Assembly (NCBI GenBank): GCA_040880525.1
Contig: JBBDIG010000024.1
Location: 76,522 to 136,359, forward strand
DNA length: 59,838 nucleotides
From: Bacteroidia bacterium
GTDB taxonomy: Bacteria > Bacteroidota > Bacteroidia > CAILMK01 > JBBDIG01
Direction of reading: 5' to 3'
Shown: positions 46,563 to 54,177 of the stretch, in pieces
How positions within the stretch are numbered: position 1 is the first letter of the stretch
Layout: the number at the start of each line of letters is the position of its first letter
The notes under the pieces: generated by a model
Database searches by the model: none
Seen by the model: only the letters and a program-made list of their open reading frames with translations
Told to the model about the DNA's origin: nothing
Program-made: the position numbers and the translations under genes

Positions 46563-46639
46563 TGGCTCCCCCACCTGGACTTGAACCAGGGACCTACTGA
46601 TTAACAGTCAGCCGCTCTAACCAACTGAGCTATGGAGGA
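46563..46639 (-). tRNA. tRNA-Asn (GTT)
   Basis: On the minus strand a complete cloverleaf: acceptor TCCTCCA pairing with TGGGGGA, D-arm with AGCTCAGTTGGTTAGAGC, anticodon loop CTGTTAA with GTT at 46605-46603, T-arm with GGTTCAAGTCC, discriminator G73 and an encoded CCA at 46565-46563. G73 is the expected asparagine identity base. Confidence 0.97.
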
Positions 46640-47733: not shown

Positions 47734-49152
47734 ATGAAAGTAACATTTACCGCTCTCTTTTGGATGGCAGCAATGACAGGTGTATTTGCGCAACCGTCCA
47801 TCGTATCCTTAGCGCCAGCCTCTGCCATACCGGGGCAACAACTGAACATTATAATAATGGGAGTAAATACCCATTTCCAGCAGGGGCTCACGCAGGTGCA
47901 GCTTGGTGACGGGATAAGTGTTCAGAGCATCCAGGTGCAGGCACCCGATCGACTTTCCGCCCTGGTGGAGATTGATGCATCAGCGGCCGATGGCTTCAGG
48001 CAGGTAGTGGTCACGACTGCTAGCGAACGTGCGGAAATGGATGCGGCCTTTGAGATTTTTGATGCGTCATCCGGAGCAAGAGCTATTCTGACTTTGCTTC
48101 CGGCAGATGTAATGTATCTCAGCGACTTTGCTGCGGATAATCTGCAAGCCGCTCCTATTCTTTTTAACATCTCAGTAATAAATGGCGCTGTGGAGGAGGC
48201 ATTAAAGCTGCGGCTGGAAGTTTATCACAGTGACTATAATAAGATCCTTACCGCTTCAAAAAACCTGGGAACTATTCAGCCCAACCAGGTAGTGCTTCTG
48301 GATAACCGGGATCTTGAGGATTACACCACGACAGGCGGGAGCAAAGCACTATTGGATGAAGCCAATAAAACGGGCGTTTTGCCTCCGGGAGCATATACGT
48401 ACAAACTGATCCTGATGGATGGCAGGGGAAACGTAATAGCAGAAGATGAAGCATTCAATACTATAACCAATACCCTAACGGGCCTTGAACTGATTGGGCC
48501 GGGAACTCCGCTCAGCGAATCTCCGGAAGTGATTTTCAATAATTTTCCAATGTTCCAGTGGTTTTCTGCCAGCAATGAATTTTCCCTTCAGCTTTTTGAG
48601 GTCAGGCCCCAACAATCCTCACCAGATGATATTGCGGATAACTTTCCTGTATATGAGCAGCAGGGAATCTTCAACTCATTTTTTCAATATCCAAATAGTG
48701 CAGAAATTCTTGAAGAAGGGAAAACTTATGCCTGGCGTATAACGGCTACATTCTTTGACAGCCGCGGAAAGCAAACTAAAAGCAGTGAACTTTTCTGGTT
48801 CAGCTACAAATCGGCATCGGGCGAGCACCTGCAGGCCGAAAGGATAGAAATAGCGCCTGCAAATCAAACTATGAAAATAGGCCAGGCCCGGCAGTTTAGC
48901 GCAACCGGATTTGACAAGGAAGGCAATGAAGTTCCGCTACAGGTGAAATGGCAGGTGATCCCGGCAGATGGTGGGACCATTGACGCTAACGGACTTTTCA
49001 GAGCCGGTACCCAACCAAAGCCGGTAGCGATAGTAGCCGAATATGGTGGTATAAAAGAACATACTTCGGTCATACTGGAATGGAATCCTGAATGGCTGGA
49101 GAACCAGTTTATGGATAAATTTTTAAAGGAAGTTTTTGGACTTCAACATTGA
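47734..49152 (+). CDS. Secreted IPT/TIG- and Big-like domain protein (operon gene 1)
   Basis: A 472-residue secreted protein with signal MKVTFTALFWMAAMTGVFA-Q. Residues ~20-105 form an IPT/TIG-like Ig unit (PSIVSLAPASAIPGQQLNI, then VQLGDGISVQSIQV and a GFRQVVVTT end). A ~130-residue strand-rich part follows (LEVYHSDYNKILTAS, PGAYTYKLILMDGRGNVI). A third domain, about 250-365, has FPMFQWFSAS and YAWRITATFFDSRGKQT, like fibronectin-type units that measure carbohydrate-like or peptide ligands. Residues ~375-455 are Big_2-like (ERIEIAPANQTMKIGQARQFSATGFDKEG). It ends at residue 472 without a T9SS sorting domain. First gene of a four-gene operon; the next gene starts within nine bases of its stop. 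Confidence 0.7.
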   Translation: MKVTFTALFWMAAMTGVFAQPSIVSLAPASAIPGQQLNIIIMGVNTHFQQGLTQVQLGDGISVQSIQVQAPDRLSALVEIDASAADGFRQVVVTTASERAEMDAAFEIFDASSGARAILTLLPADVMYLSDFAADNLQAAPILFNISVINGAVEEALKLRLEVYHSDYNKILTASKNLGTIQPNQVVLLDNRDLEDYTTTGGSKALLDEANKTGVLPPGAYTYKLILMDGRGNVIAEDEAFNTITNTLTGLELIGPGTPLSESPEVIFNNFPMFQWFSASNEFSLQLFEVRPQQSSPDDIADNFPVYEQQGIFNSFFQYPNSAEILEEGKTYAWRITATFFDSRGKQTKSSELFWFSYKSASGEHLQAERIEIAPANQTMKIGQARQFSATGFDKEGNEVPLQVKWQVIPADGGTIDANGLFRAGTQPKPVAIVAEYGGIKEHTSVILEWNPEWLENQFMDKFLKEVFGLQH

Positions 49153-49157
49153 AAATC

Positions 49158-50894
49158 ATGACAATGAGAAAACACTTACAATTCATTTTAATGACATTTC
49201 TGGCCACGATGCCAGGTCAGCTTCTTGCCCAGGTAAATGACGGGCAAACGATGCTTTACGTAAGCAAGCAAACCGGTGAGTTCAGTAAACTTAACGGAAG
49301 CAACGAAAAGACGACAGATCAATATGAAAGCGGGCAGGTAACGCTTTCCACTGATGGTCCCATCTCGTATAGCATGGACCCAGATGAAACTTCCATTGGA
49401 CCCAACGAGACCAAGACCTGGAATGGTGAACTCTTCCCGAACATTGCGCAGGCTCCGGCTGCAGGAACTTCCGTGGACGCGCAAGTTAGTGGCGACTGGG
49501 ACGTTGAGTTCAGTCGGCCTGTCGGGGCCGGTTCCGGTGGAACTGTGCTCAGCACTTATACCTGCAGCGGCTGTGCATATCACGGAACCGACAATCCGGG
49601 AGAACATGAAATTGTGAATAAACTGGGTACGGAGGTCGTACCCGTGACGATATACAGCATCAAGGCTACCATTCCCGATATTGATACTTTTTGTGCTGGT
49701 GAGGTGGGCAGCCCTTTTACCGTGGAGACTTTTCCTCCGCATGGTGGTGATTTTTTATGGACCACCAACAACCCGGCAGTTACCCTCATGGATGCGGACA
49801 AGCAAACCGTGAAAGTTGCGCTGACCGGAGTTCCCGGAATGGCGTTGCTCAACGTAAAGTGGACGATAGAGGGGGTTTCTTACACAGATCAGCGTAACAT
49901 ATTTATTTGCGGAAGCCTTGATGACATTACGGTGGCGGATGGCGATCGCACAGTAAACGCAGGCGGCACGCTCGAAGTAGTGCCTCCACTCATCGGTAAA
50001 AATATTGACCTTACTGCTTCTCCGGGCGGTGTAACCCGCTATTGCAATCCTGATCCGCTATGGAATGTAACCGGATACTGGACCAGCACACTCAGCGGCC
50101 CGTCTACGGGTTTCAGCGCGCACGGTGCGAATGCTGAAGCTGCCGTTTTCTGGCTTTTTAATTACGTACCCAAATCATATTCAATTGATGTTGGAGACCG
50201 GTGTGGCGGTACGCAGACGGCAACTATTAAAGCCTATCCGGTCAATCAGGTGAGCGCAGTCTGGAAAGTTGGAAAATATTTTAGTAAAGCGGAGGAGATG
50301 TGGAATGCGCTTCCTCCGACCGGTTGTGAGCCTAAGTTTCCGAAAGAAAACTCCAGTGTTTCTTTTGCTAATGCATGGAAAGAAAAATCTGCTTCGCCAG
50401 AGGCTTACCTGTGGTGGCAGGCCAATGCAGGATTTAATCCGCTCATTGGCATTGACTGCAAAATACGGCTGGCACCTGGCGCTATTCCCCTCCCAACATG
50501 GATCACAAATTATGTGGATCTGGGCGTCTATCTTACTTTGGATGGTGCTGTGAATTTCAATTTAGGAATGGAGCACGGAGAGAATGGCGTGACGGGTACT
50601 GGCGAATGTGCGGGAGCAGTAGGTGGCGGTTTGCTGGGCGTAGTGAGAGCGGGTGATGTAATAAGCGTGAACGTATCCGGCCACATGAATTTTATTGAAG
50701 CCAGCCTGAAAGTGGCAGGCAAAACCGGATGGATAGTATATTCAGTTGATTTGGGTTCAGGTAAGCTGGAAGCCAACGTTTCCATTGAAACCTGGGGCGG
50801 CTGGATAGAATGGCAACGGACGTGGCTGATATGGGACGGTGTGAAATGGTATGAGCTAAAAGATCAGCAGCTTTATCAATACGCAAAAGGATAA
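49158..50894 (+). CDS. Secreted cysteine-containing protein (operon gene 2)
   Basis: A 578-residue secreted protein I cannot assign. ATG at 49158 (or 49164) begins the signal MTMRKHLQFILMTFLATMPG, mature from about AQVNDG; a TTG at 49149 in the same frame overlaps the preceding stop. The mature part contains ten cysteines, including a CSGC pair, which suggests disulfides. An Ig/PKD-like unit spans about 155-245 (FLWTTNNPAVTLMDADKQTVKV). The C-terminal third is glycine-rich with regularly alternating strands (AVGGGLLGVVRAG, VNVSGHMNFIEASLKV, VDLGSGKLEANVSIE) and ends in WDGVKWYELKDQQLYQY. No T9SS domain and no enzyme motif. Confidence 0.68.
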   Translation: MTMRKHLQFILMTFLATMPGQLLAQVNDGQTMLYVSKQTGEFSKLNGSNEKTTDQYESGQVTLSTDGPISYSMDPDETSIGPNETKTWNGELFPNIAQAPAAGTSVDAQVSGDWDVEFSRPVGAGSGGTVLSTYTCSGCAYHGTDNPGEHEIVNKLGTEVVPVTIYSIKATIPDIDTFCAGEVGSPFTVETFPPHGGDFLWTTNNPAVTLMDADKQTVKVALTGVPGMALLNVKWTIEGVSYTDQRNIFICGSLDDITVADGDRTVNAGGTLEVVPPLIGKNIDLTASPGGVTRYCNPDPLWNVTGYWTSTLSGPSTGFSAHGANAEAAVFWLFNYVPKSYSIDVGDRCGGTQTATIKAYPVNQVSAVWKVGKYFSKAEEMWNALPPTGCEPKFPKENSSVSFANAWKEKSASPEAYLWWQANAGFNPLIGIDCKIRLAPGAIPLPTWITNYVDLGVYLTLDGAVNFNLGMEHGENGVTGTGECAGAVGGGLLGVVRAGDVISVNVSGHMNFIEASLKVAGKTGWIVYSVDLGSGKLEANVSIETWGGWIEWQRTWLIWDGVKWYELKDQQLYQYAKG

Positions 50895-50897
50895 CCC

Positions 50898-52091
50898 ATG
50901 ATTTCCAACAACATGAAATTTAATATCAAAACCTTTTTCTATTGCTTTCTGGCGGCTGGACTATTTTTTCCTGCCTCACTTTTTGGTCAGAAGAGGACAG
51001 TAACTACTAAGCTGGAAGGCCGGGAATACGTTTACTCTATCGAGGTTTATGCGCAGCCACGTCCCATAGAAATGGGAGTCACGAAAAAGCTGAAGCTAAA
51101 TAAACCGGAGCGGGCACTGAATGCAAACTTCAGCCTGATGAATGCCGGAGAAGTTGCTCAGTGGAAAAATCTATGGGTTGACTATAGTGCGAATCATAAT
51201 TTCAATTCCCATGATTCATCGTTTCAAAAAGCATGGGAGCGCGTGCTGTCGGTCCCCCATTTTTCCTATTTCAGAGTGGAATACAAGGACCAGGTGATAT
51301 TTATGACCGGACCGGAGGACAGGCAGGATAAATATAAGCAGATGAAATGGGCGTATAAAAAAACCAAAGACGGGTGGAAACTGAACCGTGATCTGATGGA
51401 TGATGCGCTGATGCGCTATATCAACAGCCCCACGTTTGATCCGCTTTCGGGCGAATTATCTCCTCAATGGGGTGGTATTTATCATTTTGAGCAAAGCGGA
51501 GACTCCATCCGGGATGCAGGGGAATATAAAAACACCGCTACAAATCATGGAGCTACAGCCACGGCAGGATTGACCGGGAATGCCCTGGCATTTGAGCCTG
51601 GCGATTACCTTGAGGTTCCCACAAGTTTTTCTCTTGCATTTATGAAAAACCAGATGACCGTTGAGATGGACCTGTGGGTAGAAGAAGTACCAACCGCACC
51701 TGAGAATGCGAATGGGAGAGGCGGATATCTCAGCACAGTATTCTCCAAAAATAATCCTGAGGAAAAAGAATTCATAAACTTTCAGTTGTTGCGGATGAAT
51801 GAGGAAACTGTCAGGTTTTTCGTGAATCTGGGAACAGATGCGAATCGTGTGGCAGTATCAGCTTTGGAGGTGCCGCTGAAGCAGTGGATAAAGGTGAAAG
51901 TAACATATAACGGGGAGACATTGCGCCTGTTAATTGACGGAGTGCTGGCAGCCGAGGAAACAAAGAAGGTTCAGATTGCGGGCGTTGGCCAGAATTTTTT
52001 CATCGGAAAGCAGCCGGGAAGCCAGCCATATTTTTTCTCGGGAAAAATGGATGAACTGAAGATCTCGTATGAAACCGTGAATCAGGAGTAA
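50898..52091 (+). CDS. Secreted LamG-domain protein (operon gene 3)
   Basis: A 397-residue secreted protein. The signal starts at ATG 50898 or, more likely, 50913 (MKFNIKTFFYCFLAAGLFFPASLFGQ). Residues ~30-185 are an unassigned domain with VTTKLEGREYVYSIEV and an acidic/aromatic run. Residues ~190-395 are a concanavalin/LamG-like sandwich: GIYHFEQSGDSIRDAGEYKNTA, LTGNALAFEPGDYLEVP, MTVEMDLWVEEV, QWIKVKVTYNGETLRLLIDGVLAA and FSGKMDELKISYE. LamG domains usually bind glycans or proteins. It starts three bases after the stop of gene 2 and is followed by the barrel gene after four bases. Confidence 0.78.
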   Translation: MISNNMKFNIKTFFYCFLAAGLFFPASLFGQKRTVTTKLEGREYVYSIEVYAQPRPIEMGVTKKLKLNKPERALNANFSLMNAGEVAQWKNLWVDYSANHNFNSHDSSFQKAWERVLSVPHFSYFRVEYKDQVIFMTGPEDRQDKYKQMKWAYKKTKDGWKLNRDLMDDALMRYINSPTFDPLSGELSPQWGGIYHFEQSGDSIRDAGEYKNTATNHGATATAGLTGNALAFEPGDYLEVPTSFSLAFMKNQMTVEMDLWVEEVPTAPENANGRGGYLSTVFSKNNPEEKEFINFQLLRMNEETVRFFVNLGTDANRVAVSALEVPLKQWIKVKVTYNGETLRLLIDGVLAAEETKKVQIAGVGQNFFIGKQPGSQPYFFSGKMDELKISYETVNQE

Positions 52092-52095
52092 TTTC

Positions 52096-54177
52096 ATGGC
52101 GGGCATAAAGATTTATACCTGGTTTTGTCTCCTGATATTAATGGCTGCTCCTGCCGGCAGCCAACCGCTGGGAAAGCTGCTTTCACCATCTCCGAGTGAT
52201 ACCGTGAAAAACGGGGAACTCTTCATTCTGGTGGAGTTAGATCCGGCTCTTGATATTGACAGGAACACAGTACAATTCAGACTGGATGGAGATGAGATGT
52301 CAATGCTGGTACAGGTGACTGACAACCGGGCCAGCGTGTTGATTACTCAAAGCCTGAAGCCAGGCCAACACACCTTCGACATGATTGGGAGGGGAGTGGG
52401 CAAGGTTTATTATGAAGTGAAAGGAGATTTTTTTATACTTAATTCAAAAGCATTTAATGAGCAGGCAGCCCTGTCTGAAGATGCTGAGAATAAAAAACAG
52501 AAAACTTCATTTGGCGGAAATCTCAATGCCGAAGCAATGGGGACGCGGCTTTCAGGCCCCGGACAAGAACTGAGACAGGAACCGCCATTCACCCAAAATG
52601 TGGCTTTTGAAGGAAAAGTGATCCGGGAGAAGTTTCAAATACCGATGAAGTTCTTTGTTACGAATCTCAACTATCCTGGAGTGCAGTCACGTAACCGCTA
52701 CAGCATCGGGTTCCGGAGCAAGTATTTTGATTCAGATCTTGGCGATGTGTATCCCGTATTCGACCGGTTTAGCCTCAACGGAGTTCAGACAAGAGGCACG
52801 CGGGCTGAATTGAAATTCCGCAGCATAAGCCTGACCCTGGTGCATGGAAGCATAGCTAATGCGAGGGAGGGATCATCAGAAAAATATAACATCAAACAGG
52901 GAATTCCTCCGTCTACTTTGCAAGAAGATTCCACTTACTATATTTATGGTACCTACCGCAGAAGGTTGAACGCTGCCAAATTCGCCATATCTTCTTTTGA
53001 CCGTCAGTCAACATTTTATATCAGCATGGTGCAGGCCACTGATATAGCAAACTCGATCGAAATTGGAGGTACGCCTGCACAAAACCTGGTAGGAAGCTCA
53101 GGTATGGATTTTAAAACCAAAAATGACAAATTACATCTTCAGGCTGGCGTTGCAATGAGCCTCACCACAAATGATATTTCGGCAGGAGCCCTTTCAAAAG
53201 ACGAAATTGATGAGTATTATAAAACGGACATTCCGTTCGATCCCTTGTCATATTCCGGATTGATCGCCATAAATACCACCACCACTCCCATTCTTATCCA
53301 GAAGCGAAGTTCAATGTCCTGGTTCGTTCAAAGCGTACTAAACCTGAAGCACCAGCGGATAGAGGCGCGCTACGAAAGCGTGGGGGCAGCCTATCAGTCC
53401 TTTGCAAATCCATTTTTTCTTTCTGACCGCAGGGTTATCAGCTTGTCAGACCGGTTCTTTTTCTGGAAGCGCAGAATTAATTTCAGCCTTCAGGCCAATA
53501 CCTACAAAAGCAATCTTTCGGAAATTTCTTTGCTCACAAATGAAACGCATCAGCTTACGGGCAGGCTTTCGCTGCGTCCTCATGTGAAGTTGCCGTTTCT
53601 TTTTGGGAATTACAGCTACTATATCCGGACGGCAAAAAATATGAAGACAGCGGAGACAGCATCAGAATATCACCTGAACAACCTTGTTGCGGGAGCGAAT
53701 TATATCTTTAAAACCGGCAAGCAAAGCCACACCATTCTCTTTACCTATAATCTTGTTGAAAACAACAACCAGCTCACCGCAAGTCTTTTACAGCAAACGG
53801 AAGTGGTGAGTTTTGGCCTGACGGAACTCTTCCCCTTCCGGCTTTCGCTCAATGTTCAGTTGCAGCAAATCACCACCCGGAACGATACACTGATATTTAA
53901 TGATCAAAGCGCCATCAGCGGCTTTGTAACATATTATACGAAAAGCAAAAATTGGAATTTGACAGGAAGCTTTACTACTTCAAAAGTAAAGCAGACCTTC
54001 TTTACTCCGGAATCTCTGCGGTTAAGAAATGCTATTGGAATTCAAAGACAGGTGATGAAAGGAATGCGGGTGGGATTGGAAGGAGGTTATGCGGACTTTT
54101 CAGAACCTACAAGCGAGGCGCGGGCATACAATGAATTATTTTTAACAGGGCGATTGAACTACAGGTTTTTACATTGA
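52096..54177 (+). CDS. Outer-membrane beta-barrel protein with N-terminal Ig-like domain (operon gene 4)
   Basis: A 693-residue protein with signal to about residue 22 (LMAAPAGS-Q). Residues ~23-118 are an Ig-like unit (LLSPSPSDTVKNGELFILVELD, LKPGQHTFDMIGRG). From about 140 to the end are repeated amphipathic strands of 9-12 residues with aromatic girdle residues (for example NYSYYIRTAKNM, KQSHTILFTYNLVENN, WNLTGSFTTSKV) and a final strand FLTGRLNYRFLH, close to a C-terminal outer-membrane beta-signal. It is not TonB-like: no plug domain or TonB box. I propose a surface anchor, channel or export barrel for the three proteins encoded just upstream. Confidence 0.75.
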   Translation: MAGIKIYTWFCLLILMAAPAGSQPLGKLLSPSPSDTVKNGELFILVELDPALDIDRNTVQFRLDGDEMSMLVQVTDNRASVLITQSLKPGQHTFDMIGRGVGKVYYEVKGDFFILNSKAFNEQAALSEDAENKKQKTSFGGNLNAEAMGTRLSGPGQELRQEPPFTQNVAFEGKVIREKFQIPMKFFVTNLNYPGVQSRNRYSIGFRSKYFDSDLGDVYPVFDRFSLNGVQTRGTRAELKFRSISLTLVHGSIANAREGSSEKYNIKQGIPPSTLQEDSTYYIYGTYRRRLNAAKFAISSFDRQSTFYISMVQATDIANSIEIGGTPAQNLVGSSGMDFKTKNDKLHLQAGVAMSLTTNDISAGALSKDEIDEYYKTDIPFDPLSYSGLIAINTTTTPILIQKRSSMSWFVQSVLNLKHQRIEARYESVGAAYQSFANPFFLSDRRVISLSDRFFFWKRRINFSLQANTYKSNLSEISLLTNETHQLTGRLSLRPHVKLPFLFGNYSYYIRTAKNMKTAETASEYHLNNLVAGANYIFKTGKQSHTILFTYNLVENNNQLTASLLQQTEVVSFGLTELFPFRLSLNVQLQQITTRNDTLIFNDQSAISGFVTYYTKSKNWNLTGSFTTSKVKQTFFTPESLRLRNAIGIQRQVMKGMRVGLEGGYADFSEPTSEARAYNELFLTGRLNYRFLH

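What the first reader, a model, noticed from the sequence alone, without database searches (positions are those of the whole stretch)
47734..54177. Four-gene secreted/outer-membrane operon with no T9SS sorting domain
Seen: four same-strand genes packed with 3-9 base gaps, three with clear signal peptides and strand-rich Ig/IPT/Big and LamG-like domains, the fourth an outer-membrane beta-barrel with an N-terminal Ig-like unit and a C-terminal aromatic strand. None ends in a T9SS domain, although three nearby surface proteins do. Inferred: the barrel anchors or exports the three partners, giving a surface appendage, adhesin or glycan-capture complex. I know of no named system with this gene set.
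Basis: partly seen in the sequence, partly recalled or inferred. Interest (0 to 1): 0.68.

Follow-up and report, generated by a model that had tools for sequence, protein, structure and literature searches.

The report
Outer-membrane barrel with dedicated TANFOR partner
Four neighbouring genes encode a large outer-membrane pore and three exported proteins; the pore and its main partner are distant relatives of a pair found here beside a known class of bacterial toxins whose exit route is unknown, so this locus points to a testable candidate for that exit route.

Summary
In detail: four packed + strand genes (A 47734-49152, B 49158-50894, C 50898-52091, D 52096-54177), all with signal peptides, none with a T9SS tail, in a T9SS genome. 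D is predicted as an Ig-like unit plus a ~26-strand barrel of no Pfam or NCBIfam family. A and D form a conserved pair: full-length A and D occur in the same 13 of 395 Bacteroidia genomes, adjacent in all but one broken assembly. In two genomes A, the B N-terminal domain and D are one polypeptide. B has a constant N-terminal domain, found only in A/D genomes, with at least five unrelated C-terminal bodies. C is peculiar to this window. By profile comparison, A residues 114-369 are homologous to the TANFOR N-terminus of Bacteroidetes polymorphic toxins, and D to an unnamed barrel family beside 21 of 29 TANFOR genes. TANFOR export has been guessed to use T9SS; this barrel is a better-linked candidate. 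Best reading: a toxin-free branch of a TANFOR-barrel export-and-display system, with B as cargo. Pairing is well supported; direction and mechanism of transport are inferred. An SprF-like anchoring role is the main rival.

The parts
47734..49152 (+). Gene A, 472 aa: signal peptide, IPT-like, TANFOR-like, fn3-like and Big_2-like domains, C-terminal helix with a conserved FGL(P) motif
48073..48813 (+). A residues 114-360: region homologous to the TANFOR domain plus the next fn3-like domain of TANFOR giants
   Evidence: hhalign 98.5-99.7% probability, E 1e-15 to 1e-25, 242-263 columns; unrelated fn3-rich controls at most 6.7%
48832..49086 (+). A residues 367-451: Big_2-like domain
   Evidence: profile hit to LigA structures 8gyr, E 7e-7
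49158..50894 (+). Gene B, 578 aa from ATG 49158: signal peptide, constant N-terminal domain, variable C-terminal body
49245..49898 (+). B constant N-terminal domain (LYVSKQTGEFS...KTTDQYESG...IYSIKA)
   Evidence: alignment A10; strong hits only in genomes with A and D; present inside the A-B-D fusions
49899..50891 (+). B C-terminal body, unique to this window among the B proteins found
   Evidence: no BLASTP match among the B bodies, no Pfam hit
50898..52091 (+). Gene C, 397 aa: signal peptide, unknown N-terminal half, LamG/concanavalin-like domain (51606-52085); not conserved with the system
   Evidence: PF13385 2.1e-16; no homologue in related loci
52096..54177 (+). Gene D, 693 aa: outer-membrane barrel with N-terminal Ig-like unit
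52171..52440 (+). D residues 26-115: Ig-like unit
   Evidence: predicted strands; conserved in the family alignment
52504..54171 (+). D residues 137-692: about 26 transmembrane strands
   Evidence: DSSP of the AlphaFold2 model
53170..53313 (+). D residues 359-406: conserved 48-residue loop with short helices between strands 11 and 12, possible plug or docking loop

Best explanation
D is a dedicated outer-membrane port, and A is its obligate TANFOR-type partner. All four proteins reach the periplasm by Sec. A and the constant N-terminal domain of B dock on D, and B's variable body is passed through or held at D so that it ends up on the cell surface. C is a lineage-specific LamG surface protein added to the operon. 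The locus is a small, toxin-free branch of a wider system in which the same barrel family stands next to giant TANFOR polymorphic toxins. Shown: the A-D pairing, the fusion of A + B-NTD + D, the variable bodies behind a constant B domain, homology of A to TANFOR regions and of D to the TANFOR-adjacent barrels. Inferred: that D carries out export rather than only anchoring, the route through the barrel, and what B does outside.
For: Full-length A and D occur in the same 13 of 395 genomes and lie within 6 kb of each other in 12; the 13th assembly is fragmented. Internal control: A-core loci lie within 10 kb of a barrel hit in 35 of 78 cases, loci matching only the IPT or Big part of A in 0 of 45. 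In G004 and G010 A, B-NTD and D are one open frame of ~1390 aa (sequence). B-NTD: 11 genomes with strong hits, all among the 13; bodies fall in at least five unrelated groups. A against TANFOR N-termini: hhalign up to 99.7%, controls at most 6.7%. D against TANFOR-adjacent barrels: 99.9%, 523 columns, E 4e-31. TIGR02542 loci: 21 of 29 with a D-family barrel next door. Of 20 further barrel loci that had no A hit nearby and were not used to build the TANFOR profile, 13 have a TANFOR gene (E below 1e-16) beside the barrel. Three type I loci also share an fn3-tandem third gene with the TANFOR loci (99.8%). About 26 strands is wider than FimD (24), a proven protein-translocating pore (structure matches; strand number of FimD from general knowledge). 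Jana et al. report TANFOR loci in which the toxin is a separate gene downstream of a TANFOR protein (PMC7073777), the same split as A and B.
Against: No experiment and no sequence feature proves transport. Only pLDDT and secondary structure were available, so interfaces and pore width were not seen. The most conserved part of D is its extracellular-side loops, which also fits an anchor or carrier. B is unlinked from A-D in G218 and G290 and absent or only weakly matched in G005 and G008. Seven of 29 TIGR02542 genes (about 490-1345 aa) have no barrel next to them, one more sits at a contig end.
Confidence: 0.47

Rival explanations
1. D is a dedicated surface anchor or carrier, not a translocon: A and B cross the membrane through T9SS (SprA) or another route and are then held by the extracellular loops of D, as SprF/PorP hold type B CTD proteins.
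For: Extracellular-side loops of the N-terminal half of D are its best conserved part, 17 of 38 invariant residues against 1 in periplasmic turns. Precedent: PorP-like barrels anchor type B CTD proteins and sit next to them (PMC9143113). 53 of 54 genomes with the system have SprA. Jana et al. proposed T9SS for TANFOR proteins (PMC7073777).
Against: None of A-D nor four TANFOR-locus giants tested carries a T9SS tail. SprA is found in 153 of 159 genomes of the class anyway, so its presence tells nothing. D is nearly twice as wide (26 against 14 strands) and unrelated by profile to PorP (no NCBIfam hit). The A-B-D fusions put A at the N-terminal, normally periplasmic, end of the barrel.
Confidence: 0.3
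2. A-D is an envelope-spanning sensor or gate: A and B-NTD form a periplasmic plug on D and the complex reports on or regulates the outer membrane, with no protein export.
For: In Marinimicrobia the pair sits in an operon with a FecR protein and a CHASE2-cyclase. In the fusions A and B-NTD lie N-terminal to the barrel, hence by default in the periplasm.
Against: No signalling gene of this kind accompanies the pair in the Bacteroidota loci examined; there the constant neighbours are large secreted proteins. The B bodies are far more variable than a gate would need.
Confidence: 0.12
3. D is a nutrient porin or polysaccharide channel and A-C are glycan-binding surface proteins, a SusCD-like uptake set.
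For: C has a LamG domain; AlgE and OprD-type porins appear high in the structure list, as expected for any barrel.
Against: No TonB-dependent receptor, SusD or carbohydrate-enzyme match; C is not conserved; A and B have no sugar-binding family; partners of the D family elsewhere are TANFOR proteins and other giants.
Confidence: 0.06

Closest known systems
TANFOR-domain polymorphic toxins of Bacteroidetes (TIGR02542; Jana, Salomon and Bosis 2020, PMC7073777)
   Same: A residues 114-369 align with the TANFOR plus fn3 N-terminus over 242-263 columns; Sec signal; D-family barrel next door; a split TANFOR protein plus separate cargo gene is described there too
   Different: A is 472 aa, scores nothing with TIGR02542 itself, has IPT and Big domains instead of a long fn3 body, no toxin domain and no immunity gene; the barrel is not described in that paper (its text holds no 'barrel' or 'porin')
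T9SS type B cargo with PorP/SprF-like anchor barrel (PMC9143113)
   Same: barrel encoded beside a large secreted partner in Bacteroidota; conserved extracellular loops fit partner binding
   Different: no CTD on the partners; ~26 strands instead of 14; no family match; N-terminal Ig-like unit
Two-partner secretion (type Vb, FhaC/FhaB, CdiB/CdiA)
   Same: barrel with an N-terminal periplasmic unit encoded next to a large exported partner whose N-terminal domain is constant and whose C-terminus is polymorphic
   Different: no POTRA, ShlB or TPS-domain match; 26 against 16 strands; not homologous by any search here
Chaperone-usher pore FimD/PapC and MtrB
   Same: among the closest wide barrels by structure comparison (MtrB 6r2q Foldseek E 3e-11, VIA Z 17.5, rmsd 5.2 over 448; FimD 3rfz Z 15.2, rmsd 4.4 over 379)
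   Different: TM-scores at or below 0.47 and ~10% identity: shared barrel architecture only; no pilin, chaperone or cytochrome genes

Membership tests
TANFOR polymorphic toxin (TIGR02542) | N-terminal Sec signal | tested here: met
   A begins MKVTFTALFWMAAMTGVFAQ; read by eye, no predictor run
TANFOR polymorphic toxin (TIGR02542) | TANFOR domain above the model's cut-off | tested here: not met
   no TIGR02542 hit in A or anywhere in the genome; only profile-profile homology. In 390 genomes none of the 29 hits reaches the 67-bit cut-off either
TANFOR polymorphic toxin (TIGR02542) | long fn3-rich body with C-terminal toxin domain and immunity gene | tested here: not met
   A is 472 aa with Big_2 and a helix at its end; B, C, D have no toxin family; next gene downstream is on the other strand
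T9SS substrate | type A or B C-terminal sorting domain | tested here: not met
   no TIGR04183/TIGR04131 match in A-D although neighbours match
PorP/SprF-like anchor barrel | sequence match to the family and 14 strands | tested here: not met
   no NCBIfam or Pfam match; ~26 predicted strands
Two-partner secretion (type Vb) | POTRA plus FhaC/ShlB barrel and a TPS domain on the partner | tested here: not met
   no Pfam match for D family members or for A and B; only an insignificant CdiB hit for B (0.039)
Chaperone-usher | usher family match, pilin and chaperone genes | tested here: not met
   no Pfam usher match; no such genes seen in the loci
Chaperone-usher | usher fold with Ig-like plug | tested here: inconclusive
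   FimD Z 15.2, rmsd 4.4 over 379 residues, but many barrels score similarly
D barrel family (unnamed, TANFOR-associated) | homology to barrels beside TANFOR genes and a TANFOR-type partner next door | tested here: met
   hhalign 99.9% over 523 columns; A in the same operon

The most novel reading that the evidence does not exclude
The D family with its TANFOR-type partner is an undescribed outer-membrane protein export system of the FCB bacteria, independent of T9SS, which delivers TANFOR polymorphic toxins in some species and displays non-toxic surface proteins with interchangeable bodies (B) in others, including this one.
Probability: 0.33. Interest if true: 0.9.

Novelty: new variant of a known kind. 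Interest (0 to 1): 0.7.

Why it matters
How TANFOR polymorphic toxins leave the cell is open; T9SS was proposed from neighbourhood enrichment and from co-occurrence with T9SS genes. In the class sampled here SprA is present in 96% of genomes anyway, so co-occurrence carries little weight. A barrel family without any Pfam or NCBIfam model, and so invisible to domain-based neighbourhood analysis, stands beside most TANFOR genes and in two genomes is fused to the TANFOR-type partner. That makes the question directly testable by deleting one gene. The window's locus is a small, toxin-free version of the system, convenient for biochemistry.

Tried and rejected
DUF928 (PF06051): A scores below the cut-off, no other relative carries it, literature empty; set aside in favour of TANFOR. 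Structure search of A gives only generic Ig/fn3 strings. Structures by sequence: no solved homologue of D or B. T9SS dependence by genome co-occurrence: 53 of 54 against a baseline of 153 of 159, uninformative. C with the third gene of G001: not homologous. B long body with the ~975 aa proteins beside other D-family barrels: not homologous. A full fn3-tandem gene of the kind seen beside other A-D loci was not identified in this genome; only generic fn3 hits. Folding the A-B-D fusion was not done: 1396 aa exceeds the limit, B rows misaligned, and interfaces are not reported. Promoter and terminator scans gave no more than chance.

Full report
What is there. Window positions 47734-54177 hold four packed + strand genes. 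B is listed from a TTG that overlaps the end of A; the ATG at 49158 gives the same frame and a clean signal peptide, so the gaps are 5, 3 and 4 bases. All four proteins start with a signal-peptide-like segment (read by eye). A shows a weak IPT-like start and a Big_2 domain near its end; C has a LamG domain (2e-16); B and D match nothing in Pfam or NCBIfam. None ends in a T9SS tail, while three window proteins do, in a genome with SprA and about 150 tail matches.

The barrel. AlphaFold2 on D with 12 relatives (alignment A8) gives mean pLDDT 78 and pTM 0.63: an Ig-like unit (26-115), a short helix, then about 26 strands whose loops alternate short and long as expected for a barrel with both ends in the periplasm. 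Foldseek and VIA rank wide barrels such as MtrB (E 3e-11; Z 17.5) and FimD (Z 15.2, rmsd 4.4 over 379 residues), but many porins score alike, so this shows architecture, not descent. Conservation is highest in the long, extracellular-side loops of the N-terminal half (all outer loops 0.505 on average, against 0.424 in turns and 0.416 in strands; 17 of 38 invariant residues against 1 in periplasmic turns), unlike an ordinary porin. The topology rests on the predicted model.

A and D are a pair. With profiles of A and D, 395 genomes of the class were searched. Full-length A and full-length D occur in the same 13 genomes (hypergeometric 1e-24) and lie close together in 12, the 13th being a fragmented assembly. 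Matches to only the IPT or only the Big part of A serve as internal controls: 0 of 45 lie within 10 kb of a barrel hit, against 35 of 78 for the A core (Fisher 3e-9). In G004 and G010, which are about 62% identical in the compared stretch, A, the B N-terminal domain and D are one uninterrupted frame of about 1390 codons (sequence). The order A-B-x-D recurs in G001 with an unrelated third gene; other genomes have A-D alone, a tandem A-D-A-D (G008), or A-D with a long B and an fn3-tandem gene.

B has a constant head and variable bodies. Its N-terminal domain (about 220 aa) has strong matches in 11 genomes, all of which carry A and D, even where B sits elsewhere in the genome (G218, G290). Behind it lie at least five unrelated bodies: a 280 aa type, a 700 aa type, the window's own, and two singletons in G087 and G290; the fusions have none. 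The 280 aa type is accompanied by its own ~305-315 aa secreted neighbour. This is the layout of cargo with a fixed docking domain. C has no homologue in the related loci and looks like a local addition.

Relation to TANFOR. The giants next to more distant D relatives match TIGR02542, the TANFOR domain, below its curated cut-off. Profile comparison aligns A 114-369 with the TANFOR plus fn3 N-terminus at 98.5-99.7% (E 1e-15 to 1e-25), while fn3-rich controls from the same loci stay at or below 6.7%. D aligns with the TANFOR-adjacent barrels at 99.9% over 523 columns. Of 29 TIGR02542 genes in 390 genomes, 21 have a D-family barrel within about 3 kb; one of the rest starts at a contig end. Of 20 further barrel loci, which had no A hit nearby and were not used to build the TANFOR profile, 13 have a TANFOR gene beside the barrel, the others a different 980-1200 aa secreted protein in most cases. 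Three type I loci share an fn3-tandem gene with TANFOR loci as well. Jana and colleagues described TANFOR proteins as polymorphic toxins, noted cases where the toxin is a separate downstream gene, and proposed T9SS as exporter; their main text mentions no barrel (PMC7073777).

Mechanism. I take D to be a dedicated port for TANFOR-type proteins, with A as its fixed partner and B as cargo. The pairing, fusion, homology and variable bodies are shown; export through D is inferred. The strongest rival is an SprF-like anchor (PMC9143113), which the conserved outer loops would fit and which would leave transport to T9SS. Presence of T9SS does not decide: SprA occurs in 53 of 54 genomes with the system and in 153 of 159 genomes of the class. 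The fusion is also ambiguous: A lies N-terminal to the barrel, so it is periplasmic unless the chain is threaded outward as in autotransporters.

Novelty. A is not filed as a TANFOR toxin: it fails the model cut-off and has no toxin or immunity gene. D belongs to a barrel family without a name in the libraries searched. I call the locus a new variant of a known kind, with a one-in-three chance that the barrel-TANFOR pair is a new export system. Limits: many genomes are MAGs, several loci end at contig borders, hhalign E-values are for single targets, and the paper library holds open-licence papers only, so an unseen description of this barrel cannot be excluded.

Noticed in passing
L105-L107, L109, L110, L112, L116-L118, L123 (and L091, L098, L101, L102): A second conserved layout across Bacteroidota: D-family barrel of 660-970 aa, 360-400 aa A-core protein, often an OmpH/Skp-like chaperone (PF03938), a ~200 aa lipoprotein and a 1900-2540 aa giant beginning ...ALTGGPSQPE with no Pfam domain over its cut-off. 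The giant's function is unknown.
   Followed up: partly
L090, L092, L094-L097, L103: Marinimicrobia operon: A-core protein, FecR protein, 930 aa barrel with an extra N-terminal domain, CHASE2-cyclase. The pair may be wired to second-messenger signalling there.
   Followed up: partly
L158, L160-L162, L164: TANFOR proteins of about 1250-1340 aa without an adjacent barrel; they look like stand-alone cassettes that would need a barrel in trans.
   Followed up: partly
L176, L180, L182-L184, L189: D-family barrels of ~577 aa next to a different set of ~975-1200 aa secreted proteins, not TANFOR by profile.
   Followed up: partly
L015 6690-7265, L016 6857-7426, L017 11367-11951: A ~190 aa cysteine-rich protein (CDLPNCxGxCC) lies directly beside D in three genomes.
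   Followed up: no
G000 and class sample: SprA is present in 153 of 159 genomes of the class sampled, so co-occurrence with T9SS is weak evidence for any claim about T9SS substrates in this class.
   Followed up: yes
window 46563-46639: tRNA-Asn on the - strand, about 1.1 kb upstream of gene A.
   Followed up: no
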